Positions 16,658 to 60,548 of a stretch of DNA of 64,000 nucleotides are shown here, one piece after another. Position numbers and translations under genes: made by a program. The notes under the pieces were generated by a model that was not told where the DNA came from, did no database searches, and saw nothing but the letters and a program-made list of their open reading frames with translations. The stretch is from a virus, in the IMG/VR virus record IMGVR_UViG_3300049046_000039, positions 1 through 64,000 of that record; one strand, given 5' to 3'. Within the stretch, counting starts at the first letter, position 1. Every line of letters starts with the position of its first letter.

Positions 16658-19600
16658 TTACGCTACGCGTATTCTAACTAAAGCAACAGACCCTGCAGCG
16701 TCAATTACCGTTCCAGCCGTGGCTGGAAGAGCGCCTCCAACAAAGGTGTAGAAGCCATTAACACCACTAGCTCCATTATAATAAAGAACCATCGAAGCAG
16801 AGTTACCTATAGTTCGCACTGTAGTAGTAACAGACGCGGTAGTTGCGATGAAATACAGAGTTCCTGCATTTAACGTGATAGAACTGAACGTTCCCACCTT
16901 ATCGCCTGTAGAATCGCCTGCGACAGAAACAGAAACCAGTCTGTTGTTTGGTTTACGGCTAGCGTTGGAGTCGTAAATACCCAGTGAAATAGTACTTCCG
17001 CCCGAACCACTGGCAGTAGTTACTTCAATAGCTAGTGCGTCGACTACAATATCGTGAGAAGGAATGAACGGAGTCCATACCGCATTTCCTGTCACGACGT
17101 CTGTAGACGTAAATGATCCATTCAGTGTCTGACTCGTGTAGAGTCCACTTGGAAGAGTTATAGGATAGTGAGCTCCAGTACTACCGTTCGCACCAGCACC
17201 GTAACGTACAATTACGATATCTGAGCCGTTAGGCTGTGTGGTTGTTAGTGTAGTTCCTGTGATACTGTACTGCGAAGCTGGCTGATGCACACCCTCAACA
17301 AACACTAGAACCTGATTAGCAGTTGCCGTCTCTGGAATAGTTATGTTTTGAGAAGCACCAGTACCTGTTGCTGTTACCGGAGCCCATCCACCATCACCGC
17401 CGACTGAACCTGTGAAACCGGTTGGACCTGTCGGACCTGCCACAGTTGACGCCGAACCAGTGAAGCCAGTTGGTCCAGTCGCGCCCGCCGAGCCTGTGAA
17501 TCCTGTTGGCCCAGTCGCACCCTGCGAACCCGTAAAGCCCGTCGGACCAGTCGCACCAGCAGAACCAGTGAAGCCAGTTGGTCCAGCTACCGTAGAAGCC
17601 GAACCTGTGAAACCAGTTGGTCCAGTCGCACCAGCAGAACCAGTGAAGCCAGTTGGACCAGTCGCGCCCGCCGAGCCTGTGAATCCTGTTGGCCCAGTCG
17701 CACCAGCAGAACCTGTGAAGCCAACAGAGCCGTTGAAGCCAGTAGGACCAGTCGCGCCCTGCGAACCAGTAAAGCCGACGTCACCTGTTCTAGCAAAGCT
17801 TAAAACTAGTGAAGTGCCGTTAGTTGGAAGCGTTCCAGATACATATGATACGGTTAGAGTTCTGTAACCAGTGCTATTGACTACTGCGCCAGTGATCGTG
17901 AATATTATTGGCAGGCCAGTAGTAGAATTCTGAAATACTAACTTGCCGCGATTTGCAGTGTTCGTAGAAGTACCAAACGTATCGATCCACGCACTTACGT
18001 TAACACCAGTTGCGTCTAAGTCATCAATGTATATAGAGCTGACTGAAGCTATAGTAGCGTTGTTAAAGCGCACGGTGCCGGCACCAGGGTCTGCAGCAGT
18101 CGTGGTAGTACTAAACGTATACTGCACACCTCCGCGAATACCTTGCGAACCAGTGAATCCTGTCGTACCTTGAGAACCAGTGAAGCCAACAGAGCCGTTG
18201 AAGCCAGTCGGACCAGTAGCGCCTTGAGAGCCAGTAAATCCAACAGATCCGTTAAAGCCAGTTGGTCCAGTTGGACCAGTCGCACCCTGAGAACCAGTGA
18301 ACCCCGTCGGACCCGTTGGTCCAGTAGCACCCTGCGAACCAGTGAAGCCAGTTGGTCCAGCTACCGTAGAAGCCGAACCTGTGAAACCAGTTGGCCCAGT
18401 CGCACCAGCAGAACCTGTGAAGCCAACAGAGCCGTTAAAGCCAGTTGGTCCGGTTGGACCTGTTGCGCCCTGAGAGCCTGTAAAGCCAGTCGGACCTGCT
18501 ACTGTAGAAGCCGAACCTGTGAAACCAGTCGGACCTGTTGGTCCAGTTGGTCCAGTTGTACCTGCCGAGCCAGTAAATCCAGTCGGACCTACGGCGCCCT
18601 GAGAACCAGTAAATCCAGTCGGACCTACAGCGCCCTGAGAGCCAGTGAAGCCTGTCGGACCAGCTACTGTCGAAGCAGAGCCGGTAAAACCAGTCGAACC
18701 TGTAAAGCCCGTTGGTCCTGTCGCTCCAGCCGATCCGGTGAAGCCAGTCGGACCAGCTACAGTAGAAGCAGAACCCGTGAAGCCTGTAGGTCCTATCGGT
18801 CCAGTTGGTCCGGTAGCGCCTTGAGAACCAGTAAAGCCTGTCGAACCGTTAAATCCAGTCGGTCCTACAGCGCCCTGAGAGCCAGTAAATCCGGTAGGAC
18901 CAGTCGCACCCTGAGAACCAGTGAAGCCAGTCGCACCAGCCGGACCCTGAATGCTACCTACGTCCTGCCATGCAGAGCCGTTCCACACCCATAGGTTACC
19001 GCTAATTAAGTACGCGTCGCCAGAACTTCCTGTTGGCGGTAGTAAGCCAGGATTTGCTAGCTCACCGATGATGTTGATACCCTGACCGATCGAACCTGTA
19101 AATCCGACAGGTCCTGTCGCACCCTGCGAACCAGTTAGACCAGTCGGTCCAGTCGCACCCTGCGAACCAGTTAGACCTGTAGGACCAATAGGACCGGTAG
19201 CACCCTGCGAACCGGTGAAGCCACGAGAGCCAGTTAGACCAGTTGGTCCGGTCGCGCCGATAGAGCCGTTAAATCCTGTAGGACCAATAGCACCCTGCGA
19301 ACCTGTAAAGCCGATAGGACCGATTGCGCCTTGAGAGCCAGTAAGACCAACTACACCCTGCGAACCAGTTAGACCAGTAGGTCCTACTACACCTTGAGAG
19401 CCCGTGAAGCCGGTCGCACCAGTCGATCCCTGCGAACCCGTAAAGCCAATCGAACCAGTAAAGCCGGTTGGACCTACAGCAGTAGAAGCTGAACCAGTGA
19501 AGCCAGTCTCGCCCTGAGAGCCAGTGTAGCCAATCGAACCAGTGAAGCCGGTTGGACCTACAGCAGTAGAAGCAGAACCAGTGAAACCGGCCGAACCAGT

Positions 19601-19834
19601 GAAACCTATCGATCCAGTGTAACCAACAGAGCCGGTATAGCCGTCTCGACCGATAACACCGTCCTGACCAGCCGACCCAGTATAGCCTCGCATAGCAGCC
19701 ATAGCTCTTATCGCAAGATCTTCGCTGTACTCTTCGTAAGTTACTCTTGTCGTTGCCGCCGCCTCAGACACGACAACCTGCGTAGGAACCTGTCCTATCG
19801 TGTTTAGAACAGTAACTTTTATGTTATATGTCAT
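16658..19834 (-). CDS. Giant collagen-like tail-fibre protein
   Basis: 1058 residues. A short N-terminal domain (1-50) is followed by long Gly-X-Y arrays built from G-F-T-G-S, G-A-T-G-P and G-S-T-V-A-G-P units, interrupted by small globular inserts near residues 270-300 and 575-690, and ending in a beta-rich C-terminal domain of about 220 residues. Collagen-like triple helices are known in phage fibres. The repetitive DNA makes copy-number variation likely and creates long false reading frames on the + strand. Confidence 0.85.
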
Positions 19835-34876: not shown

Positions 34877-34998
34877 TGTATTTTCCTGTATGATTTGTAT
34901 GTTGTTGTATATGATTTGTATAGCATGTCACTTCACCATAATGTAAATGCAGCAAGAGTTTGCTCCCTCGTGGGCCAGCCTTATCTTGCTGCATTGTA

Positions 34999-35027
34999 TT
35001 TATATCACAGTAATGCAAGAATGTCAA
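34999..35027 (-). promoter_or_regulatory. Sigma-70-like promoter for gene 32
   Basis: TTGACA, 17 bp, TATAAA on the - strand; the -10 region also reads TATAAATA-like, so early and late expression could share the site. Confidence 0.7.
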
Positions 35028-36397
35028 CCATTTTTTGCATTATTTCTCACTTGCTCAAACGTGACTTGATTTTGAAGAGCTCCGTTTCTGAAGCGAGTCT
35101 TCAATAGAGAAGGACCGACTGGAGCTCCAGTCTCTAACTTGATTGTTCTATACTCGTCACCTACTTTAATAAGGTCGAGCATTCCGCGCTTAGACTTCTT
35201 GCCCGGGTCGGTAATCGGGTCCTTATATACGTCTCTCCATTCGCCGTCGACGCAGATCGCCGAGCACTTCATTGCAAACTTCAGAGTATCACGATTGACC
35301 TGCTGAAGCAGGGCGCCACCTTGACCAAAGGTAACATTGTCTGCACTATAGTTAGCCATCTCGAGAGAGTACAGAATAGACCTGATGCTAGAGTGGTCGA
35401 TTCCGTCGCCTTGGATGACTCTTACATTATTGAGGACTCTAAACCCTTTATCATTGACAGTGTGACCGAAGTACTTGTCAAGGATTTGAACGCACTTGGT
35501 AACGACCGCAGCCGGGTCGCCCGAGTCGGGACGGACTACCAAAGTAGCCCCGCTCTTAAGCACCTGGTCCTTAAGGATGGTGCCCCACATCTTGCACGCT
35601 TCGAAGATACTGTAGCTGTCGCTAACACATGCGACCAAGCCACCTGGTTTTGCGTGCTTCTGTAAGATGTTGCTGTAGGCTCTAGCCTCGTTCTCTCGAC
35701 CCCAGCTAGTGATGGTAGAGTGCTCTGAAGCAGGAATGCTGAAGCCTACGATGTCTTTAGTATTGTAGTACTTTCTCGCGAAGAGAAGAGATTCGACTGT
35801 GTCGGTTCCCATAAAGTTGATGAGGTGAGCCAGGCCGCCGATGCCGGCAGACTCTAGACTCGAAACACCTCGAGCGCCGAAGTCGTGAAGCTTGAAGTCG
35901 ATTAGAGAAGGATCGCCGGTTCTCTCGAGAGCGTTGAGGATGATCTTCTTGCTATAGTAGCTGTTAGTGGCTACGGTGGTAGGATACCAGATAGCTCTGA
36001 GCAGCGCTGTCTCGAGAAAAGATACTAACCACCAGCACTTCGGGTCGGTGTTCCAGATGTCTACGAGAACATTGCTGGTTGGGAGAATAGTTCCCTCGTC
36101 TACACCCCGGATGTTGACTGGCAGGAATCCGTCGTGTTCATAGACGATGTACTCCCAGCCTTCGCGATAGAAGGGAAGTCCGTGTGCTGTAATGACTGCT
36201 TCGGCTTCGTCGATCATTTCCATTGTGACCTGGTGTGACAGATACTCCTTGAGGAACATCTGAAGTCCGAAGTATACGGTATCGTCGTACTTACCGCCGC
36301 GCGACTCAATGTAAGAGTAGACGTACTCCGTCTTGTCGGGATACTGATTCCACTGACTGTACTTGTACGAGTCGCTGTTAAGAATGATGTTTTGCAT
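35024..36397 (-). CDS. nadV: Nicotinamide phosphoribosyltransferase (NAMPT)
   Basis: 457 residues, full length for the family. G-A-T-L-V-V-R-P-D-S-G-D-P is the phosphoribosyl-binding signature and F-G-Q-G-G-A-L-L-Q the C-terminal catalytic loop; S-R-G-G near residue 33. Makes NMN from nicotinamide and PRPP. Adjacent NMNAT-Nudix gene completes a two-step route to NAD+. Confidence 0.93.
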   Translation of the reverse strand: MQNIILNSDSYKYSQWNQYPDKTEYVYSYIESRGGKYDDTVYFGLQMFLKEYLSHQVTMEMIDEAEAVITAHGLPFYREGWEYIVYEHDGFLPVNIRGVDEGTILPTSNVLVDIWNTDPKCWWLVSFLETALLRAIWYPTTVATNSYYSKKIILNALERTGDPSLIDFKLHDFGARGVSSLESAGIGGLAHLINFMGTDTVESLLFARKYYNTKDIVGFSIPASEHSTITSWGRENEARAYSNILQKHAKPGGLVACVSDSYSIFEACKMWGTILKDQVLKSGATLVVRPDSGDPAAVVTKCVQILDKYFGHTVNDKGFRVLNNVRVIQGDGIDHSSIRSILYSLEMANYSADNVTFGQGGALLQQVNRDTLKFAMKCSAICVDGEWRDVYKDPITDPGKKSKRGMLDLIKVGDEYRTIKLETGAPVGPSLLKTRFRNGALQNQVTFEQVRNNAKNG

Positions 36398-36437
36398 TGT
36401 AAAACTCCTTTACAAGATGTAGCTAAGCGTCTATCGC

Positions 36438-37496
36438 TTAACCTTTAATAGCTGGGATGAAGTGTTGAATGATGTCGAAGTGATCGTCGAACAGAAAGTC
36501 TCGCTTGATCTGCGAGATGGGGAACCACTTAGCCTTCTCGGCGTCGTCACTTCCTCTCACTCTCGGCAAGTTCCACTCACCGTCACTCAGACGGATGAAA
36601 CCAGCGAATGTTACAGACCTACCTAGAAGCGATCGACCTGGAGCAGCGAAGTGCTGAACTCTGTCGAGAGAACCACGAAGAACCTTATCTGGAACGTCGA
36701 TCTTGGTCTCTTCTCGAAGCTCTCGGAATATGCCGTCGACAGGATCGCGGTCTCTGTTAGCGTCGAAGTATCCACCAGGAAGAGCCCACAGACCCTTACC
36801 AGGAATCGACCTGCGCCTGATAAGAAGAACGTGTCCGGCCTGAACTACTACAGCGTCGCAGGTAACTCCTACGATGGGATACTCGTAGACTTCCTTCTTC
36901 TTTATGTAGTTGTCGATGAACTTCTTCTCTTCGACGATAGAGTCGTAGGTGTCCGCATCGAACTCGTCGAGGAACTCCATTACGGCTCCTGGAACGACGC
37001 CAGCGATAAAGCCGCGGTGCATGTTTGGATTGAAGTACATCTCGCGAATCTTAGTCGCGTCGAGGATGTCAGTGTGAGTGGTGTTATGGCGAGCCCACTG
37101 AGGAAACATGTTGAGGTAGCGACTGGTGTCGCCGTCTTTGGAGTATCCTATTAGGACGATCTCGCTGTCTTCTTTACAGTAGTTGGAGACGATAGACTGA
37201 ACTCGTTCTATCCACGCGTTGTCGTCGTAGATAGTGTCGATGTTAGGCTCGATCGTGACTCTGATTAGCTCACTGTTCTCTTCTTGCTTGCGCAAGTCCG
37301 CGATCGAGTACATTATCATGCACCGACGCTCTTCAAACGTAAACGGATTCTTGTGAGTTCTTGGTTGGTCTGCCGAACCGACTATGACCAGAACGCGATC
37401 TGCGATCTTAGAAGCTTCTACAATGGTCTTGAGGTGCGCATTATGTAGTGGCTGAAAGCGGCCAATGTACACCGCTAGCTTGTACTTTTTACTCAT
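36438..37496 (-). CDS. nadM: Bifunctional NMN adenylyltransferase / Nudix hydrolase
   Basis: 352 residues. N-terminal nucleotidyltransferase with G-R-F-Q-P-L-H-N-A-H (residues about 12-21) and a Y-S-K-D-G-D motif; C-terminal Nudix domain with G-G-Y-F-D ... F-R-E-L-R-E-E-T. Converts NMN to NAD+; the Nudix part may hydrolyse ADP-ribose or related products. Domain order matches the known NadM-Nudix fusion. Confidence 0.93.
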   Translation of the reverse strand: MSKKYKLAVYIGRFQPLHNAHLKTIVEASKIADRVLVIVGSADQPRTHKNPFTFEERRCMIMYSIADLRKQEENSELIRVTIEPNIDTIYDDNAWIERVQSIVSNYCKEDSEIVLIGYSKDGDTSRYLNMFPQWARHNTTHTDILDATKIREMYFNPNMHRGFIAGVVPGAVMEFLDEFDADTYDSIVEEKKFIDNYIKKKEVYEYPIVGVTCDAVVVQAGHVLLIRRRSIPGKGLWALPGGYFDANRDRDPVDGIFRELREETKIDVPDKVLRGSLDRVQHFAAPGRSLLGRSVTFAGFIRLSDGEWNLPRVRGSDDAEKAKWFPISQIKRDFLFDDHFDIIQHFIPAIKG

Positions 37497-37551: not shown

Positions 37552-37580
37552 ACTATATATCTAATCACCATAAATGTCAA
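37552..37580 (-). promoter_or_regulatory. Sigma-70-like promoter of the NAD+ operon
   Basis: TTGACA, 17 bp, TATAGT on the - strand, 55 bases before the NMNAT gene. It overlaps the 3' end of gene 59. Confidence 0.75.
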
Positions 37581-38148
37581 TAACTATGTCGCGTAACTTT
37601 TTTGCGTCATATTGCATGAATGGATGATACTTACGTATCTTAAGAGCTACCTCCTGCCAGACTGGATCGAAGTCCATCTTGCGATTCCAGTAGTTGTAGC
37701 AACCGCTAAGGTGAACTAGAATTACTAAGGTTTCAAGACTGATCGACTGACGTAAGTATTCGCGGAGAAGGGGTGGATGCCTTCCGTCTCCAGCCCTAAA
37801 CATCTCGTCGAAGGACTGATAGGTCTCACTGAGCTTATTGACTTCCTCCTTGAACGTATAAGAAAGAGATTGGTTCCGTTTGGCCCAACTTCGATATACA
37901 GTCTCGGCGTTGTCGTTAGTCGTAAGTTCTCCGACCCATACTTTAGGATCGACAAGAAGGTTTGCAAGCATGAAGCCGAAGGGGTCTCTCTTCTTTGCCA
38001 GCTTCTCAAAATGGTATCTGTCGCGACGGGTATCAAATGACTTGGCACTGGCGGAAACTTTCCCTGCATACTTGTGGTAGTCATATGATTCTTTCGTTAG
38101 ATGATTCTTGAGTGCTAGGTAGGTCTTATAAACGTCGAATGGCTTCAT
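37561..38148 (-). CDS. 59: Helicase loader gp59
   Basis: 195 residues from the ATG reading K-P-F-D-V-Y-K (T4 gp59 is 217). Conserved D-x-x-K-Y, R-R-D-R-Y-x-F-x-K-L and A-N-L-L-V features. Loads the replicative helicase onto gp32-coated DNA at forks. The next gene upstream overlaps it. Confidence 0.85.
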   Translation of the reverse strand: MKPFDVYKTYLALKNHLTKESYDYHKYAGKVSASAKSFDTRRDRYHFEKLAKKRDPFGFMLANLLVDPKVWVGELTTNDNAETVYRSWAKRNQSLSYTFKEEVNKLSETYQSFDEMFRAGDGRHPPLLREYLRQSISLETLVILVHLSGCYNYWNRKMDFDPVWQEVALKIRKYHPFMQYDAKKLRDIVIDIYGD

Positions 38149-38335
38149 CGTATGGCCCGTTATCGCACTTAGCACAAGTGCCCTTATAACGGCACGTGCC
38201 TGTTAAACATCTTATCTTTTCGAAAATTGTGGTTGGAATATACCACAGAGGGACTGGCGAGGTCTTACACTCGCACCATCTTCCCGTCTCAGTCATTTGA
38301 GTGTGTTGTTGGCAGCGTCCACAGAACCACTTCAT
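38126..38335 (-). CDS. Small multi-cysteine zinc protein
   Basis: 69 residues with nine Cys arranged as C-x2-C, C-x-C, then C-x4-C-x5-C-x2-C, suggesting two zinc sites. Overlaps both gene 59 and gene 33. Unknown function. Confidence 0.65.
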   Translation of the reverse strand: MKWFCGRCQQHTQMTETGRWCECKTSPVPLWYIPTTIFEKIRCLTGTCRYKGTCAKCDNGPYDEAIRRL

Positions 38336-38589
38336 ATGGGTAGCTTAGCCGACGATGGAATGATGTTGAGCTCTTCAGCTTCGTTCTGAATCTTAGCTCT
38401 TAGGACAGGGTCTTTCTTTATGAGCGCCGCTGCAGTCTCTACGTCTACGTTATTCTCTTCGCACCAGTGACATATCGCGTCGATAATGTCTCCAGCATTA
38501 TTCTTGGTTAGTCGATCTACTTCTTTGTTTAGATCGACGTTAAACTTACTACTTGACATCTTCAATCTTTCCATTAATGAGTCTATCAT
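38332..38589 (-). CDS. 33: Late-transcription co-activator gp33
   Basis: 85 residues. I-I-D-A-I-x-H-W-C-E-E-N ... V-E-T-A-A-A-L-I and L-N-I-I-P match gp33 homologues. It bridges RNA polymerase and the sliding clamp at late promoters, consistent with the TATAAATA boxes in this window. Confidence 0.8.
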   Translation of the reverse strand: MIDSLMERLKMSSSKFNVDLNKEVDRLTKNNAGDIIDAICHWCEENNVDVETAAALIKKDPVLRAKIQNEAEELNIIPSSAKLPI

Positions 38590-38827
38590 GCCTCATTATA
38601 AACCAAGTTAGCATGAAAGTAAAGGAAAAACCGTACATGAACTTACCAAATAGCAGAGGTGCGTACATGGTAGATAGCGTGGTAGTAACTAGAAGAACGA
38701 CTAAAGTCAGTGTGTAGAGATCGAATCTCTTGTAAGGTGAAGCGGTCGATAGAAATATCGTGATTGCCGCGACCATCGCGCAAATGTAGCCTAGTATGCT
38801 ACTGATCAATATTACGAAATACAACAT
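38549..38827 (-). CDS. Three-TM membrane protein
   Basis: 92 residues with hydrophobic segments at about 1-25, 38-55 and 62-82. Overlaps gene 33 by 41 bases. Holin-like size, but no evidence of that role. Confidence 0.65.
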   Translation of the reverse strand: MLYFVILISSILGYICAMVAAITIFLSTASPYKRFDLYTLTLVVLLVTTTLSTMYAPLLFGKFMYGFSFTFMLTWFIMRHDRLINGKIEDVK

Positions 38828-39033
38828 TATCTAGTTAGACTATCTTTCGCTTTCTTCGGGTCGGCATCCATCATCTTAATAACGTACTCACATTGCCTAG
38901 TGTATTCGATTAGGATTAGTAGATCCTCACCGCTAACAGTTACGTTCTTCTGCTTTGCGGGCGTTTTAAGAACAGCCAGCTCAAGATCGTCTATCAACGC
39001 TTCCATGAGCCCGTGCTTACTAAGATGTGCCAT
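38827..39033 (-). CDS. Unknown small protein
   Basis: 68 residues, ATG followed by helical sequence; coupled to the membrane gene by one-base overlap. Not recognised. Confidence 0.65.
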   Translation of the reverse strand: MAHLSKHGLMEALIDDLELAVLKTPAKQKNVTVSGEDLLILIEYTRQCEYVIKMMDADPKKAKDSLTR

Positions 39034-39094
39034 AGGGTACTCCTTGTTTGTACCCTATATTTAGGCCGAAGATAGTCTTAAACGCCCGCAAAAG

Positions 39095-39247
39095 TTAAGA
39101 TTGGCTAACTACAGGCCCCGCTGTGATGTAAGATTCGATTGTAGTTGCAATGGTAATGAGGTCGTTTATGTCTGTATAGTTGTTGGTGGAGGCGACGAAA
39201 CGAATGGCTTCGTCGATACAGTACATTCTTAGTTCTCTGTCTGACAT
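39095..39247 (-). CDS. Conserved small phage protein
   Basis: 50 residues. The opening S-D-R-E-L-R-M-Y-C-x-x-E-A is typical of a small protein widespread in T4-like phages, function unknown. Its start overlaps the stop of the next gene upstream. Confidence 0.6.
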   Translation of the reverse strand: MSDRELRMYCIDEAIRFVASTNNYTDINDLITIATTIESYITAGPVVSQS

Positions 39248-39528
39248 TACGTAGTGTATCCCTGATTAGCTAACTCGTAGCCATACATCATCATGCGGCA
39301 CTGAAGAGCGAAGTCTCGAACCTTACGATTAGTATCTAGCTTGTAAGCAGTTATAACTTCGTTAGACTGTAGCTCGTCAGTGGCTAGGCTGGCACAGACG
39401 AGAGCTCGCTGTGCTAACTCAGTGTCGGTAATATCCTGATCGTCATTAGGAACGATCAGTTGTTGCTGAGCATACAGCGCGGCCGGAACGCACACTAAGG
39501 CTGCAGCAGCTAAAAGCAGCTTCTTCAT
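39247..39528 (-). CDS. Secreted small protein
   Basis: 93 residues with a classical signal peptide (K-K-L-L-L-A-A-A-A ... A-L-Y-A, cleavage about residue 20) and two Cys that could form a periplasmic disulfide. Function unknown. Confidence 0.7.
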   Translation of the reverse strand: MKKLLLAAAALVCVPAALYAQQQLIVPNDDQDITDTELAQRALVCASLATDELQSNEVITAYKLDTNRKVRDFALQCRMMMYGYELANQGYTT

Positions 39529-39544
39529 ACAAATTTTCCTTGAA

Positions 39545-39866
39545 AAGTGGTGGGATTCTGTTGCTAGGTTCCCACCGGACCCCAGGACTCACTGCTTAGG
39601 CAGCGAGCGCAAGGACATTGTTGTCGTTTGCGGTTATTTTGTGTGGGCCTTAGCGTGGACCCAAACGATCTTCTCAGTCTAGCCTTCAGCGACCATCGAT
39701 CCTAGTTCGGCCCCATCAGAAGCAGTGGTTGGAAGTCTCTTCATACCAACTTTCATTAAGATCGTCTATAGCCAACCTTAAGACCGTCACTGCTTCTGGT
39801 GGAGCCGCCGGGTACTGCCCCCGGGTCTGATCTCCTATCGTTCAACTTCTGGCATATCTCTATGCC
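39545..39866 (-). ncRNA. ssrA: Circularly permuted two-piece tmRNA (alphaproteobacterial type)
   Basis: - strand order: acceptor piece first, ending CGGCTCC-A-CCA at 39797; an intervening segment of about 80 nt whose ends pair (GAAGCAGTG with CACTGCTTC); then the coding piece starting GGGGCCG at 39714. GGGGCCG and CGGCTCC form a 7-bp acceptor stem with a G3-U70 pair, the alanine identity element. The T arm reads CCGGG-GGCAGTA-CCCGG. The tag frame GCA (39631-39629) to TAA encodes ANDNNVLALAA. It frees stalled ribosomes. Exact outer ends are estimates. Confidence 0.93.
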
Positions 39867-39880
39867 GCGAAGATAGAGTA

Positions 39881-39909
39881 TTTATAACATAGCTTGACTA
39901 AAATGTCAA
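39881..39909 (-). promoter_or_regulatory. tmRNA promoter
   Basis: TTGACA, 17 bp, TATAAA on the - strand; TATAAATA-like overlap means a late promoter is also possible. Confidence 0.75.
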
Positions 39910-40217
39910 GGCCTTTTTTTGCGTCTCTTAATCATAGTCAAGAGCTTGTTCTCAACCTTAGACTTCTTGTTGTTGCAACCTGCGCAGATAAGCTGCCAGT
40001 TGTCTTCTTCGTCTGGTCCACCAAGACACTGAGCCACCATGTGGTCTACACTAGCCTGAAGCGCCCAAGGCTTCTCTTCGGAGTGCTCGATGTGCATCTC
40101 CTGCTCGCATATCCAGCAAGTCTTGTTCTTACGCCATTGGGTCATCTTCCACTGAAACTGTGGATACATCTTTTGCATACGCCTAGCGTGGCCGGCGTTC
40201 TCGTATACGATAGGCAT
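39906..40217 (-). CDS. HNH endonuclease
   Basis: 103 residues. C-W-I-C, then D-H-M-V with a preceding S-V, N-W-Q-L-I-C-A-G-C-N and N-K-K form a zinc-stabilised HNH fold. Such free-standing HNH proteins are often homing endonucleases, but it is coupled to the next gene and may have a phage role. Confidence 0.8.
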   Translation of the reverse strand: MPIVYENAGHARRMQKMYPQFQWKMTQWRKNKTCWICEQEMHIEHSEEKPWALQASVDHMVAQCLGGPDEEDNWQLICAGCNNKKSKVENKLLTMIKRRKKRP

Positions 40218-41383
40218 TACTTCTTAACAACCCTTACTAAGACAGTGTTCTCGTTCATTCGTTGCTGAAGCTTCTGGTCTGAACCGTTAACGGTGTCCAT
40301 AAACTTTCGCAATGATACTTTGCCTGCGGCTTGCAGTTCTCTTAGAACGCCGTCGACTCTATTGGCTCTGATCTTCTTGGTTACAGAAGAGCTCTCGTCA
40401 TAATTGATGATCGCTGTTCGATGCACGCTCAGACCCTTGATAGGATCGCTAGCTCTGAACACTGTAAGCTGATTGTACTTACAGTTGAACGTCCACAGCT
40501 CTAGAGCACCGACGACTTCTGAAGGATAGACCGACTGTATCTTGAAGACGTTATCGAACTCCTTATACTTAAAGTCCTTGAGGAGCTTTTCGGTAGTCAT
40601 CGTCTTCGGCTTGCGAGGCTTACGAGTCTTCTTCTTGTTGTTCTGATACTGCTCGATATCTTCGACCAGCATTACGTAGAATCCGTACAGCTTCTCGAGG
40701 TGATCTTTGGTGTAACCCTCGTAACCCTCGACCTTACCGTGATAGGCCAACTCGATGTCTTCGAGTTCTGGGTTGTACTTGTCGTGAAGCTGCTTAGCGA
40801 TCTGCTGAGATACTTCGTTAGCCTGAAGGAAGTCGAACATGCTGAATTCCGACTTCCAGTTGTCTAGGAAGTCGTCAATCTTAACTTCGACCTGACAAGC
40901 CAGGTGATCGTAGAGCGCGGCCATTCGATCCTGTACGGTGGGCTTTTTGGGCTCATTGCCCATACCATCCTCAGGCTCGGGTTGCTCATTCTCGGCCCTT
41001 CTCTGGCCATCTGAGATGGCTTCCTGAAGGCGGGTCTCAAAGTAATTCTTGGTCTTGTCTGGAAGAATAGCGCCTTGAGACCGCATCCTAGCGATCCAGC
41101 ATATCGTAGACGGAATGAACTTGTCTGGAATCGCTCGTACAGCACGAAGATCGGCAGTGCGATTTGTGTTCTTGAGATACTCGACAAGGAACTCTTTCGC
41201 TTCCTTGGTCTCGCACATGTAGTTGTACCAGTTGTATGCCTGAGTCAGCTGACTGGCATTCAGTTCTTTGCTGGTGTAGACTGGTTCTCCGCCGTAAGCT
41301 TTGCTGTTTACTAAAAACTGTTCTTGCTTAGACTTCGTCTTCTTCTTTGACTTGAGCTTGATAAGTGCTGGGCGCTTTGCCAT
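40217..41383 (-). CDS. Large conserved phage protein, unknown
   Basis: 388 residues. Basic N terminus (residues 1-25), acidic insertion (130-150), Lys-rich stretch near residue 260 (N-N-K-K-K-T-R-K-P-R-K-P-K), and a beta-rich C-terminal part. Reminiscent of long hypothetical proteins of cyanophage-type T4 relatives; I cannot assign a function. Confidence 0.7.
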   Translation of the reverse strand: MAKRPALIKLKSKKKTKSKQEQFLVNSKAYGGEPVYTSKELNASQLTQAYNWYNYMCETKEAKEFLVEYLKNTNRTADLRAVRAIPDKFIPSTICWIARMRSQGAILPDKTKNYFETRLQEAISDGQRRAENEQPEPEDGMGNEPKKPTVQDRMAALYDHLACQVEVKIDDFLDNWKSEFSMFDFLQANEVSQQIAKQLHDKYNPELEDIELAYHGKVEGYEGYTKDHLEKLYGFYVMLVEDIEQYQNNKKKTRKPRKPKTMTTEKLLKDFKYKEFDNVFKIQSVYPSEVVGALELWTFNCKYNQLTVFRASDPIKGLSVHRTAIINYDESSSVTKKIRANRVDGVLRELQAAGKVSLRKFMDTVNGSDQKLQQRMNENTVLVRVVKK

Positions 41384-41424
41384 GTAATACTCGCACGTGT
41401 AGTGTTGAAACTTTATTTGGAGGG

Positions 41425-41453
41425 ATTATATATCTAAGTAAAGCGAAAGTAAA
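41425..41453 (-). promoter_or_regulatory. Sigma-70-like promoter
   Basis: TTTACT, 17 bp, TATAAT on the - strand, serving the 388-residue gene. Confidence 0.65.
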
Positions 41454-41687
41454 CTACTTTTTTCTCAGCTTTACAAGTTCGCGCGAGCTTACGACAACAG
41501 CTCCAGCAGCGACGGCGAGCTCGAACTCGTGCTCGCGAAGATCGTAGTGATCTCGATCGAACCAACAGCGTTTGCAGCCGATTCTAGCTGCAAACGCGTG
41601 TAGTTCGTCCAAAGTATCTGCCATGAGATGACAGTACTTCTTTCGTTTGTGGAAGAAAGCTCTAGGCTTGTCTACGTAGACTGTCAC
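41454..41687 (-). CDS. DUF4031 family protein
   Basis: 77 residues. C-H-L-M-A-D-T-L-D-E-L-H-A-F-A-A-R-I-G and H-Y-D-L match the DUF4031 family of small phage and bacterial proteins, function unknown. Confidence 0.8.
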   Translation of the reverse strand: MTVYVDKPRAFFHKRKKYCHLMADTLDELHAFAARIGCKRCWFDRDHYDLREHEFELAVAAGAVVVSSRELVKLRKK

Positions 41688-57336: not shown

Positions 57337-57413
57337 TGGTGCGCGTGACGGGACTCGAACCCGTGACGTCATGATTTTAGAGATCACCGCTCTTCCAACT
57401 GAGCTACACGCAC
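57337..57413 (-). tRNA. Amber-suppressor tRNA, anticodon CTA
   Basis: 77 nt with CCA. Acceptor GTGCGTG/CACGCGC, D arm GCTC/GAGC, anticodon stem GTGAT/ATCAT, loop CTCTAAA (U33, CTA, A37), T arm ACGGG-TTCGAGT-CCCGT, discriminator A. The anticodon reads UAG. Short variable region rules out Leu, Ser and Tyr bodies. Linear and canonical. Amino acid not determined. Confidence 0.92.
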
Positions 57414-57670: not shown

Positions 57671-57761
57671 GGGTTGCCGTGTTTTCCACCATTGGAAAAC
57701 GCCTGTTTTGGCGGCGTTTATTGGAATCGAACCAATTAGTACGGTTTGCTGTAAGCAACCC
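57671..57761 (-). ncRNA. Clamped tRNA-like element U3 (permuted)
   Basis: Closing stem GGGTTGC/GCAACCC. Inside: motif TTACAGCAAACC, T arm ATTGG-TTCGATT-CCAAT, acceptor 3' strand AAACGCC, G, CCA, linker AAACA, acceptor 5' strand GGCGTTT, a shortened D-arm region, then the closing stem. So T arm and 3' acceptor precede the 5' acceptor. An anticodon arm cannot be found. G follows the stem. Confidence 0.75.
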
Positions 57762-57771
57762 ATTTTTTTAC

Positions 57772-57878
57772 AGGATCAACTTGGTTTGTTGCCTTTACCG
57801 TTTGGCTATTCGTCGAAGTCGACAAAATGGGAATCGAACCCATAATACACAAATTGTGTGATTTGCTGAACTGATCCT
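57772..57878 (-). ncRNA. Clamped tRNA-like element U2 (permuted)
   Basis: Closing stem AGGATCA/TGATCCT. Inside: GTTCAGCAAATC, half anticodon stem TTTGT, T arm ATGGG-TTCGATT-CCCAT, acceptor TTTGTCG, A, linker CTT, acceptor CGACGAA, then TA-GCC...GGC D arm and ACAAA, which pairs with TTTGT. No CCA encoded. The joined anticodon loop would be 8 nt and its anticodon is ambiguous. Confidence 0.75.
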
Positions 57879-57888
57879 AAATTAGTAC

Positions 57889-57984
57889 AGGCTTCAGATT
57901 TAGGTGGGAATCGAACCCACACAGATCGATTAGAAGTCGATTGCTCTACCTTTGAGCTACTGAAAGGTTTGCTGTAAGAAGCCT
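57889..57984 (-). ncRNA. Clamped tRNA-like element U1 (Arg TCT body)
   Basis: Closing stem AGGCTTC/GAAGCCT; TTACAGCAAACC follows the 5' strand. The cargo is in normal order: D arm GCTC/GAGC, anticodon arm ATCGA-CTTCTAA-TCGAT (TCT), T arm GTGGG-TTCGATT-CCCAC. The inner acceptor is poor (CTTTCAG versus CTAAATC), so the clamp stem may replace it. First element behind the promoter at 57994. Confidence 0.75.
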
Positions 57985-57993
57985 TATAACCTA

Positions 57994-58945: not shown

Positions 58946-59110
58946 TTAACCCTCCAAAACTCGTGTTAGCACTATAAGTGCAGCGTTGAACTGCTTTCCC
59001 TTATTGTGTCGAATATCGTGAGCGAACCAAGGTTTGCCCTCGGCGTCGTATTGATCAGCCAGGAGGTTTCGTGCCTCCTGGCTGATCAGAGATGACTTAC
59101 CTGAAGTCAT
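58946..59110 (-). CDS. Small protein overlapping the end of the Ro-like gene
   Basis: 54 residues; ATG lies inside the last codons of the Ro-like gene in another frame. Its codons 8-21 coincide with a 15-bp palindrome at 59052-59088. Sequence (E-G-K-P-W-F-A-H-D-I-R-H-N) looks coding. No clear ribosome binding site, so coupling to the Ro-like gene is likely. Confidence 0.5.
   Translation of the reverse strand: MTSGKSSLISQEARNLLADQYDAEGKPWFAHDIRHNKGKQFNAALIVLTRVLEG
59052..59088. repeat. 15-bp perfect inverted repeat
   Basis: TGATCAGCCAGGAGG pairs with CCTCCTGGCTGATCA around 7 bases. No T run follows on either strand, so it is not a standard terminator. It begins 10 bases after the Ro-like stop codon. 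Confidence 0.75.
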
Positions 59111-60548
59111 ACTTAGACTGCATGACAGTCTTACGCATGATACCTTCGGGAGTCATGTCGTCGTAGTTAGCGCCGAGAACGGCCTTCATGATCGCTGGCG
59201 AGAAGCCAGAGACGAGGGCAGTTCCAGTCTCGTCGAATGAAACCGGCACGTTACCGTGAGAGTTGAGGTTCCAGAAGACTACTGCCGGAGCTTCGTAACC
59301 AGCACGACGGTACTCGTTACGGATCATCTCGATTGCTCGAGGGTCGTGAGCTTTCGCGCTAGAGCTCCAGCCGCCGCCACCAGTGCCTACGCACTGGTTG
59401 AACTGCATGTCAGACATGATTAGGAGCATCGTTGGCATTTCTGCCGCAGGCACCTTACCCTTGACTGCAGTATCGAGGATGCGATGGAGCGCCTTCTCGA
59501 GGTCGGTAGACATGTTCCAAGACGATCTCGCCATGGCGTTGTATCGCTGAGACAGCGTACCCTTGACGGTCACGAACTCAGGCTCACTGGAGAAGGTAAG
59601 GAACATGTCCTTGAACTTACCAGTGTTCTTGCTCGCGCAATAGAGACCTAGAGAGATCGCTACGTCGAGACAGGTGACATCCACGCCCTTCGTACCACCG
59701 CCGGCGCGGCAGCCCATAGAACCTGAAACGTCTACCAGAGGCAGAACGTTAGCGTCGCCGATAAAGTTAGGTAGAGCGTCCCACTGAGCGTTAGCCACGG
59801 TAGAGTCACCGTATCTCACGGTCTTGATGATGTCGTAAGGGTATACGGCACCAGCGTTGACCTTGACACCCTTGTCGCCACGCTTGAGAGCTTCCTTGTA
59901 TGCAGTGAACTGCGTAGGAGCCTTCTTAGCGAAAGCCTTGGTGTAGCGAGACATAGCCAGAGAAGGAACGTGGTTGAAGTTGATAGCTTCAAACTCACGG
60001 TTACACATCTGAGTCTCGACAACTCTCGTGAGGTTCACGAGCAGCTTGCGGTACTGCTTTGGAGACATTGCCATGAAGTTGCGCAGCTCTACAGCCTTAG
60101 CGCCCTTACGTGGCATCCACTTAGCGGCCAGACCATTACCGTTCTGGAGGTTCTCCTGAATGAGAGAGAACGCTACAGACTTCACTTCCTCGGTGTTGAA
60201 CACGAGAAGGTCGTCGAAGCGGCCCAGATCAGGAACACGCGACAGAAGGTTAGTCTTGGTGAGGTAGTCAGGGTTGACTTTCTCGAGATGGAGAAGGATG
60301 TCGCGGAAGAGCTTACGCTCACCGGCGCCGCCGCGGATGTCGCGAGCCCAGAGGGCGATACGGATAGCCAGTTCGCTGTCTTCTACCAGCGCCTTGTTGA
60401 AGAGGCCGGTAACGTCCTTGCCACGCATAGCGCCGATCTGACCAAAGAGGTCTACGTTGGCGCGCATGGTTGACTTGTATGCAGCCATGCCATTCGTGGT
60501 CTTGGTTTTTACAGGAGTGTTGTTTACTGCATTCGCAAAAGTATTCAT
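59097..60548 (-). CDS. Ro60/Rsr-like protein (TROVE plus vWA domains)
   Basis: 483 residues. TROVE-type HEAT-repeat region about 30-250 with A-R-D-I-R-G-G-A-G-E-R-K-L-F and R-V-P-D-L-G-R-F-D-D-L-L; vWA domain about 265-450 with the MIDAS motif D-V-S-G-S-M-G at 273-279. Ro orthologues form a ring that binds misfolded RNA ends and Y RNAs; some bacterial Y RNAs carry a tRNA-like module. Flanked on both sides by clamped tRNA-like elements, and its own leader carries one. DUF2828 is the closest alternative label. Confidence 0.85.
   Translation of the reverse strand: MNTFANAVNNTPVKTKTTNGMAAYKSTMRANVDLFGQIGAMRGKDVTGLFNKALVEDSELAIRIALWARDIRGGAGERKLFRDILLHLEKVNPDYLTKTNLLSRVPDLGRFDDLLVFNTEEVKSVAFSLIQENLQNGNGLAAKWMPRKGAKAVELRNFMAMSPKQYRKLLVNLTRVVETQMCNREFEAINFNHVPSLAMSRYTKAFAKKAPTQFTAYKEALKRGDKGVKVNAGAVYPYDIIKTVRYGDSTVANAQWDALPNFIGDANVLPLVDVSGSMGCRAGGGTKGVDVTCLDVAISLGLYCASKNTGKFKDMFLTFSSEPEFVTVKGTLSQRYNAMARSSWNMSTDLEKALHRILDTAVKGKVPAAEMPTMLLIMSDMQFNQCVGTGGGGWSSSAKAHDPRAIEMIRNEYRRAGYEAPAVVFWNLNSHGNVPVSFDETGTALVSGFSPAIMKAVLGANYDDMTPEGIMRKTVMQSKYDFR

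What the first reader, a model, noticed from the sequence alone, without database searches (positions are those of the whole stretch)
39545..39866. Phage-borne permuted two-piece tmRNA with tag ANDNNVLALAA
All diagnostic parts are visible: G3-U70 acceptor stem across the permutation, paired intervening segment and tag frame ending L-A-L-A-A. A tmRNA of host type in a lytic-type phage could tag host proteins or keep ribosomes free late in infection. The permuted arrangement also parallels the permuted tRNA-like elements in the same genome.
Basis: partly seen in the sequence, partly recalled or inferred. Interest (0 to 1): 0.8.

Follow-up and report, generated by a model that had tools for sequence, protein, structure and literature searches.

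The report
Phage permuted tmRNA behind late promoter
This bacterial virus carries its own two-piece tmRNA, the RNA that frees stalled ribosomes and tags the unfinished protein; phages with such RNAs are already known, but here the gene sits at a locus shared by a whole group of related phages, behind a site that looks like the phage's own late promoter, and its tag was found in no bacterial genome searched.

Summary
A complete permuted tmRNA lies on the minus strand at 39546-39873 (Rfam alpha_tmRNA 130.8 bits, E=2e-35; ARAGORN tag ANDNNVLALAA; fold z=-6.0). It has the G3-U70 acceptor stem, T-arm, encoded CCA, an 82-nt spacer closed by a 9-bp stem, tag ORF with UAA, and 3' terminal hairpin. The 115.8-kb record is a T4-superfamily myophage with 34 tRNAs and no SmpB, not host contamination. 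In all 32 contigs that hold both flanks and a tmRNA, it lies on the same strand between a phrog_11903 gene and gp33; 15 contigs have the interval without it. All 24 distinct phage upstream regions carry the T4-type late-promoter box TATAAATA (>=7/8) at a fixed place, against 6/171 host ssrA genes; the window also has a perfect TTGACA-N17. The tag is absent from 84,980 bacterial and archaeal genomes. Most likely function: working trans-translation with host SmpB and ClpXP, through infection and especially late. Phage two-piece tmRNAs, including one beside gp33 in phage Melnitz, are published, so this is a new member of a known kind; the late promoter, lineage-wide locus and phage-specific tags are the added findings.

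The parts
39904..39909 (-). TTGACA, -35 hexamer; 17 nt before the -10 box
   Evidence: TTGACA-N17-TATAAATA with 0 mismatches, one of only two such sites in the window (the other lies before gp32, the ssDNA-binding protein); same -35 and spacing in L002, L006, L030, L037, L042, L234 and Melnitz
39879..39886 (-). TATAAATA, exact match to the T4-type late promoter box, also usable as a sigma-70 -10
   Evidence: 10 sites in the record, all on the minus strand, reversed control pattern 1; >=7/8 match at 66-82 nt before the CCA end in 24/24 phage loci, 6/171 host loci
39797..39873 (-). 5' piece: acceptor 3' strand, T-arm, encoded CCA (ends at 39797; 5' end predicted about 39873)
39715..39796 (-). 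intervening sequence removed in processing; arms 39796-39788 and 39727-39719 pair (9 bp) and extend the acceptor stem
   Evidence: pairing ends in 25/26 phage sequences that differ in sequence; fold
39546..39714 (-). coding (mRNA-like) piece: acceptor 5' strand GGGGCCG, D-arm-like part, tag, 3' terminal hairpin
39596..39631 (-). tag reading frame ANDNNVLALAA and UAA stop; resume codon GCA
39549..39576 (-). 3' terminal hairpin GGUGGGA...UCCCACC holding CAACAGAA, conserved in the alphaproteobacterial tmRNA model
40217..41383 (-). phrog_11903 protein (388 aa), upstream marker of the locus, function unknown
39906..40217 (-). HNH endonuclease-like ORF (103 aa); an HNH ORF is also at this locus in L002
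39247..39528 (-). small ORF (93 aa) with signal-peptide-like start, directly after the tmRNA
   Evidence: no family
38332..38589 (-). gp33, late-transcription coactivator
37561..38175 (-). gp59, helicase loader

Best explanation
It is a functional phage tmRNA. Inferred steps: host RNA polymerase transcribes it early from the TTGACA-N17-TATAAA promoter, and the phage-modified polymerase (gp55/gp33 type) transcribes it late from the overlapping TATAAATA box. The precursor folds so that the spacer stem extends the acceptor stem; tRNA-processing enzymes of the host cut out the spacer, leaving two RNAs held by the acceptor helix. Host AlaRS charges it through G3-U70. Host SmpB and EF-Tu carry it to ribosomes stalled on broken phage or host mRNA. 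The ribosome switches to the tag ORF, adds ANDNNVLALAA and is released; the LAA end sends the product to host ClpXP. The gain to the phage is free ribosomes and recycled amino acids while host DNA and mRNA are being destroyed. Shown: gene anatomy, constrained structure, promoter motifs, conserved locus, absence of SmpB from the record. Inferred: transcription, processing, charging, tagging, timing and benefit.
For: All tmRNA parts are intact. The acceptor stem pairs in 26/26 distinct phage sequences, with double-sided changes at pairs 4-6 but G3-U70 never changed. Tags differ between phages, yet all in the phrog_11903-linked group keep ANDN at or near the start and [LI]AA at the end. Window and L002 tags differ by three synonymous changes and no amino-acid change (about 0.02 by chance at a 0.25 synonymous fraction). 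The order phrog_11903 - tmRNA - gp33 is kept in 32/32 contigs that hold both flanks and a tmRNA; phage Melnitz has tmRNA - gp33 - gp59. The late box occurs in 24/24 phage upstream regions against 6/171 host ones, and the -35 is kept in the nearest relatives. The record carries 34 tRNAs, so a translation-support gene fits the genome. SmpB was not found in 12 phage records while the control genomes gave it.
Against: No expression, charging or tagging data. No gp55 sigma factor was identified among the ORFs scanned (the scan was not exhaustive), so the late-promoter reading rests on the motif and on gp33. 15 related contigs that hold both phrog_11903 and gp33 show no tmRNA between them, so it is not essential to the group. 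The host presumably has its own tmRNA, so the benefit is not obvious.
Confidence: 0.78

Rival explanations
1. Recent capture of a host (Sphingomonadales) ssrA gene, carried as cargo without a settled role.
For: The tag end LALAA and the acceptor stem GGGGCCG/CGGCUCC are typical of Sphingomonadales. A tree with the window inside the Sphingomonadales clade is not rejected (p-AU 0.40).
Against: Same locus and promoter in divergent relatives and the same tag in L002; exact tag in no genome of the bacterial collection; nearest rows in the tree are phage tmRNAs L002 and L006; only 55/62 identity to the best host tRNA-like core.
Confidence: 0.1
2. The RNA acts on the host tmRNA system rather than for rescue: it competes for SmpB or ribosomes (decoy), or its altered tag changes the fate of tagged proteins.
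For: A tRNA-like-domain-only form in mycobacteriophage DS6A resembles a molecule that inhibits tmRNA (PMC4131195, PMC11915505). The phage brings no SmpB, so it must compete for the host's.
Against: The tag frame, stop and degradation signal are kept, and the tag ends are constrained across the group; a plain decoy would need none of them.
Confidence: 0.08
3. A remnant of an attachment site: ssrA is a common integration target and the gene was carried off by a past temperate ancestor.
For: ssrA is a known integration site (PMC11915505), and the Melnitz authors raised this origin (PMC9004378).
Against: The gene is complete, with a phage-type promoter and lineage-wide gene order, in a record with T4-superfamily replication and tail genes. 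No integrase search was run.
Confidence: 0.03
4. Host DNA joined to phage in assembly.
For: None found.
Against: Phage genes on both sides in one record and the same arrangement in dozens of independent contigs.
Confidence: 0.01

Closest known systems
Permuted (two-piece) tmRNA of Alphaproteobacteria, Rfam RF01849 / RF04321
   Same: Order of pieces, tRNA-like domain with G3-U70 and CCA, tag start ANDN and end LAA, 3' terminal hairpin with CAACAGAA
   Different: Phage-borne; T4-type late box as -10; tag ANDNNVLALAA not in any genome of the collection searched; shorter stretch between tag and terminal hairpin than the Rfam model
ssrA of Methylophilales phage Melnitz and related marine myophages (PMC9004378)
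   Same: Two-piece tmRNA upstream of gp33 and gp59, TTGACA-N17-TATAAATA promoter
   Different: Different tag (ANDNYVPVDYALAA); phrog_11903 upstream here; no glutamine riboswitch reached Rfam's cut-off in the window; the authors read the promoter as early only
tmRNA of mycobacteriophages (Bxz1 group) and Bacillus phage G (PMC4131195)
   Same: Phage-encoded tmRNA in a large phage
   Different: The window's is permuted and of alphaproteobacterial type; that those are one-piece is from my own knowledge, not tested
ArfA (PF03889) of relatives of this phage
   Same: Phage-borne ribosome-rescue factor in the same phage group, in some records without tmRNA
   Different: A protein that works with RF2 and adds no tag (PMC10107115 for ArfA/RF2); it also co-occurs with tmRNA in G013-G015

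Membership tests
Permuted two-piece tmRNA (RF04321 / RF01849) | Covariance-model score above the curated cut-off | tested here: met
   130.8 bits against 50 and 91.2 bits against 47
Permuted two-piece tmRNA (RF04321 / RF01849) | Acceptor piece encoded upstream of the coding piece, with a spacer between | tested here: met
   CCA at 39797, spacer 39796-39715, GGGG at 39714 on the minus strand
Permuted two-piece tmRNA (RF04321 / RF01849) | G3-U70 alanine determinant and A73-CCA | tested here: met
   Present; G-U kept in 26/26 distinct phage sequences
Permuted two-piece tmRNA (RF04321 / RF01849) | Short tag frame ending in a ClpXP-type hydrophobic/Ala end and a stop | tested here: met
   ANDNNVLALAA-UAA
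Permuted two-piece tmRNA (RF04321 / RF01849) | Processed into two RNAs, alanylated, bound by SmpB, tags proteins | not testable with these tools
   Needs RNA and protein from infected cells
Melnitz-type phage ssrA | Next to gp33-gp59 of a T4-superfamily phage | tested here: met
   tmRNA, two small ORFs, gp33, gp59
Melnitz-type phage ssrA | Glutamine riboswitch in the 3' part | tested here: not met
   No such match in the window at gathering threshold, nor at E<=1 in 38500-41500; the authors themselves call it non-defining (PMC9004378)
tRNA-like-domain-only phage tmRNA (DS6A type) | No tag coding region | tested here: not met
   Tag frame present and conserved
T4-type late promoter | 8-bp TATAAATA box about one turn before the start, no -35 needed | tested here: met
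   Exact box in window; 24/24 phage loci >=7/8; NATAAATA/TATAAATA described in PMC2984593, 8-bp box in PMC2988020. The start site itself was not mapped
T4-type late promoter | Dependence on gp55 | tested here: inconclusive
   gp33 found; gp55 not found among the ORFs scanned, scan incomplete
Recently captured Sphingomonadales ssrA | Groups with Sphingomonadales tmRNA | tested here: inconclusive
   Free tree puts it with phage tmRNAs; AU test does not reject the other placement

The most novel reading that the evidence does not exclude
Across a lineage of T4-superfamily phages of Alphaproteobacteria, tmRNA is a phage-controlled late gene: a phage late promoter drives it beside the late-transcription gene gp33, so that the phage replaces host trans-translation late in infection with its own fast-diversifying tags, and some members use ArfA instead or as well.
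Probability: 0.4. Interest if true: 0.62.

Novelty: new member of a known kind. Interest (0 to 1): 0.42.

Why it matters
The role and origin of phage tmRNAs are open; the Melnitz paper suggests a stray host gene and offers two untested roles. A gene kept at one locus in dozens of phages, behind a late-promoter box, with G3-U70 fixed while its neighbours covary and with tags that differ from hosts, points to selection for function in the phage and gives a testable timing. It makes the question 'does a lytic phage run its own ribosome rescue?' directly addressable, and adds ArfA as a second phage-borne rescue factor in the same group.

Tried and rejected
1) tmRNA and ArfA as mutually exclusive: suggested, rejected (G013-G015 have both). 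2) Donor from tag: exact tag absent from genome contigs; the looser pattern points to Sphingomonadales but also to one-piece Myxococcota tags, and the tree does not settle it. 3) All phrog_11903-linked phage tmRNAs as one clade: neither shown nor rejected (p-AU 0.30); long branches and 209 columns limit the tree. 4) Finding relatives by the HNH protein or the tail-tube cap protein: no confirmed loci; blastn of the tmRNA against phage isolates: none. 5) Genome-wide use of TAG as a sense codon with the CUA tRNA: 5 of 80 long ORFs still end in TAG, and only one is followed by a long in-frame ORF, so not pursued. 7) The consensus promoter scanner missed the site because it demands T at the last -10 position.

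Full report
WHAT IS THERE. ARAGORN and two Rfam models find a permuted tmRNA on the minus strand of the window. Reading 5' to 3' on that strand: promoter 39909-39879; acceptor/T-arm piece from about 39873 to the encoded CCA at 39797; an 82-nt spacer 39796-39715; the coding piece from GGGG at 39714; tag GCA AAC GAC AAC AAU GUC CUU GCG CUC GCU GCC UAA (ANDNNVLALAA) at 39631-39596; terminal hairpin 39576-39549. The predicted precursor folds far better than shuffles (z=-6.0). In the fold the first and last nine bases of the spacer pair and extend the acceptor stem, which is the expected substrate for tRNA-type processing (established knowledge of two-piece tmRNA; cleavage itself not shown).

IT IS A PHAGE GENE. 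The record is a 115.8-kb virus record with T4-superfamily genes: tail tube cap related to the Sinorhizobium phage phiM12 group, gp32, gp33, gp59, PhoH, UvsX-like recombinase, sliding clamp, ribonucleotide reductase and 34 tRNA genes. SmpB was not found in it or in 11 other phage records, while the control genomes gave it as expected.

THE LOCUS IS SHARED. The 388-aa upstream neighbour (phrog_11903) led to 80 related loci. Permuted tmRNAs above cut-off were found in 38 of those 80 records (33 of 50, 5 of 30). Among contigs that hold both phrog_11903 and gp33 I count 32 with a tmRNA (window included), always between the two and on the coding strand, and 15 without (counted by hand). Phage Melnitz has the same tmRNA-gp33-gp59 order. 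The nearest sequence relative, L002, has the same tag with three synonymous differences and the same promoter, although the DNA around it has diverged.

SIGNS OF SELECTION. In 26 distinct phage sequences all seven acceptor pairs form in every sequence; pairs 4, 5 and 6 change on both sides, while G3-U70 never changes. L230 has GGGCCAG/CUGGUCC, three changed pairs next to a kept G-U. The spacer ends pair in 25 of 26 with different sequences. The tags of the phrog_11903-linked group keep ANDN at or near the start and [LI]AA at the end while the middle varies in length and sequence. The window-L002 comparison (3 synonymous, 0 non-synonymous) is in the expected direction but small; other close pairs do show amino-acid changes in the middle of the tag.

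A LATE PROMOTER. The -10 region is TATAAATA, the T4 late promoter box; NATAAATA is reported as the late promoter of cyanophage S-PM2 (PMC2984593), and T4 late promoters have an 8-bp box, no -35, and A for T at position -13 in some sites (PMC2988020). In this record TATAAATA occurs 10 times, all on the minus strand, against one for the reversed control pattern; in the window 5 against 1.03 expected, none of 100 shuffles reaching 5. Sites lie before or at the start of the tail-tube-cap gene, gp32, tRNA-Thr and the tmRNA. Upstream of the tmRNA, 24 of 24 distinct phage sequences match the box in at least 7 of 8 places, 66-82 nt before the CCA end (14 perfectly), against 6 of 171 host ssrA genes, 0 of 4 isolates outside this locus, and 13% of shuffled phage sequences. 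Several, the window included, also have a perfect TTGACA 17 nt upstream; in the record only the tmRNA and gp32 have both. I infer early and late transcription. The Melnitz paper called its promoter early (PMC9004378); the same sequence there contains the late box.

ORIGIN. The exact tag is absent from the collection of 84,980 bacterial and archaeal genomes and from 93 alphaproteobacterial tags sampled. Tags of the form ANDNxxLALAA belong mostly to Sphingomonadales (ANDNEALALAA) and to one-piece tmRNAs of Myxococcota. The window's acceptor stem GGGGCCG/CGGCUCC is also the Sphingomonadales form (71/85 against 1/86). In the tree the window sits with L002 and L006, and next with L033 and Melnitz, apart from the Sphingomonadales clade; but with 209 columns and long branches the AU test cannot reject the alternative. 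A Sphingomonadales host is plausible; recent capture is unlikely.

FUNCTION. The simplest reading is ordinary trans-translation run from a phage gene with host SmpB, AlaRS, EF-Tu and ClpXP. The gain is inferred: ribosomes freed from broken messages while host DNA and mRNA are destroyed. That relatives carry ArfA, an unrelated rescue factor, fits a need for rescue in this phage group, although ArfA and tmRNA are not exclusive.

NOVELTY. Two-piece tmRNAs in phages are published (53 two-piece of 133 unique phage tmRNA structures; 17 of 47 Melnitz-cluster contigs; PMC9004378), so this is a new member of a known kind. New here, as far as I could check: the late-promoter assignment, the lineage-wide locus with phrog_11903, the phage-specific tags, and ArfA in the same group.

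Noticed in passing
L242:7230-7427; L362 (Cr30) 1498-1650; L038:5441-5554; L364; L367-L369: ArfA-like proteins (PF03889, above cut-off) in relatives of this phage: Ochrobactrum phage vB_OspM_OC, Caulobacter phage Cr30 and several viral contigs, some without and some with tmRNA. The OC gene has a hairpin plus T-run inside the frame, as known for bacterial arfA; the Cr30 and L038 proteins end soon after the KGKGS core.
   Followed up: partly
34997-35027 (-): The ssDNA-binding protein gene (gp32) has the only other perfect TTGACA-N17-TATAAATA site of the record, i.e. the same combined early/late promoter as the tmRNA.
   Followed up: partly
57337-57413 (-): tRNA with CUA (amber) anticodon, apparently an amber suppressor; 5 of 80 long ORFs end in TAG. 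One of them (81901-82614 of the record) is followed in frame by a 370-aa DUF6267 ORF.
   Followed up: partly
57740-57990 (-): Just after an early-type promoter (58022-57992) lie several T-arm-like repeats (GGGTTCGATTCCC) and a tRNA-like body at 57966-57896 (anticodon loop reads UCU) whose normal acceptor stem does not pair; GGCTTC/GAAGCC arms enclose it.
   Followed up: no
L342 (record 84001-104000): 31 tRNA genes in about 11 kb, together with the window 34 in the record; probably a near-complete set.
   Followed up: no
L245, L246, L247: Two-piece tmRNAs not annotated in isolated phages Erythrobacter phage vB_EliS-L02 (VNDNDVVVARDEVRLAA), Roseobacter phage DSS3P8 (ANINNAPMEMAIAA) and Rhodobacter phage RcXuper (ANENFAPMEMRLAA), with a long tRNA array next to it in L02.
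   Followed up: partly
L341:1021-1590 (-), record 65021-65590: Acb1-like anti-CBASS protein (PF23474, 81 bits).
   Followed up: no
16658-19834 (-): 1058-aa protein made of collagen-like GxTGFTGS repeats (PF01391).
   Followed up: no
35024-37496 (-): NAD salvage pair: nicotinamide phosphoribosyltransferase and a nucleotidyltransferase-NUDIX fusion.
   Followed up: no
59097-60548 (-): 483-aa DUF2828/DUF7788 protein, possibly Ro/TROVE-like RNA-binding by appearance (not tested).
   Followed up: no
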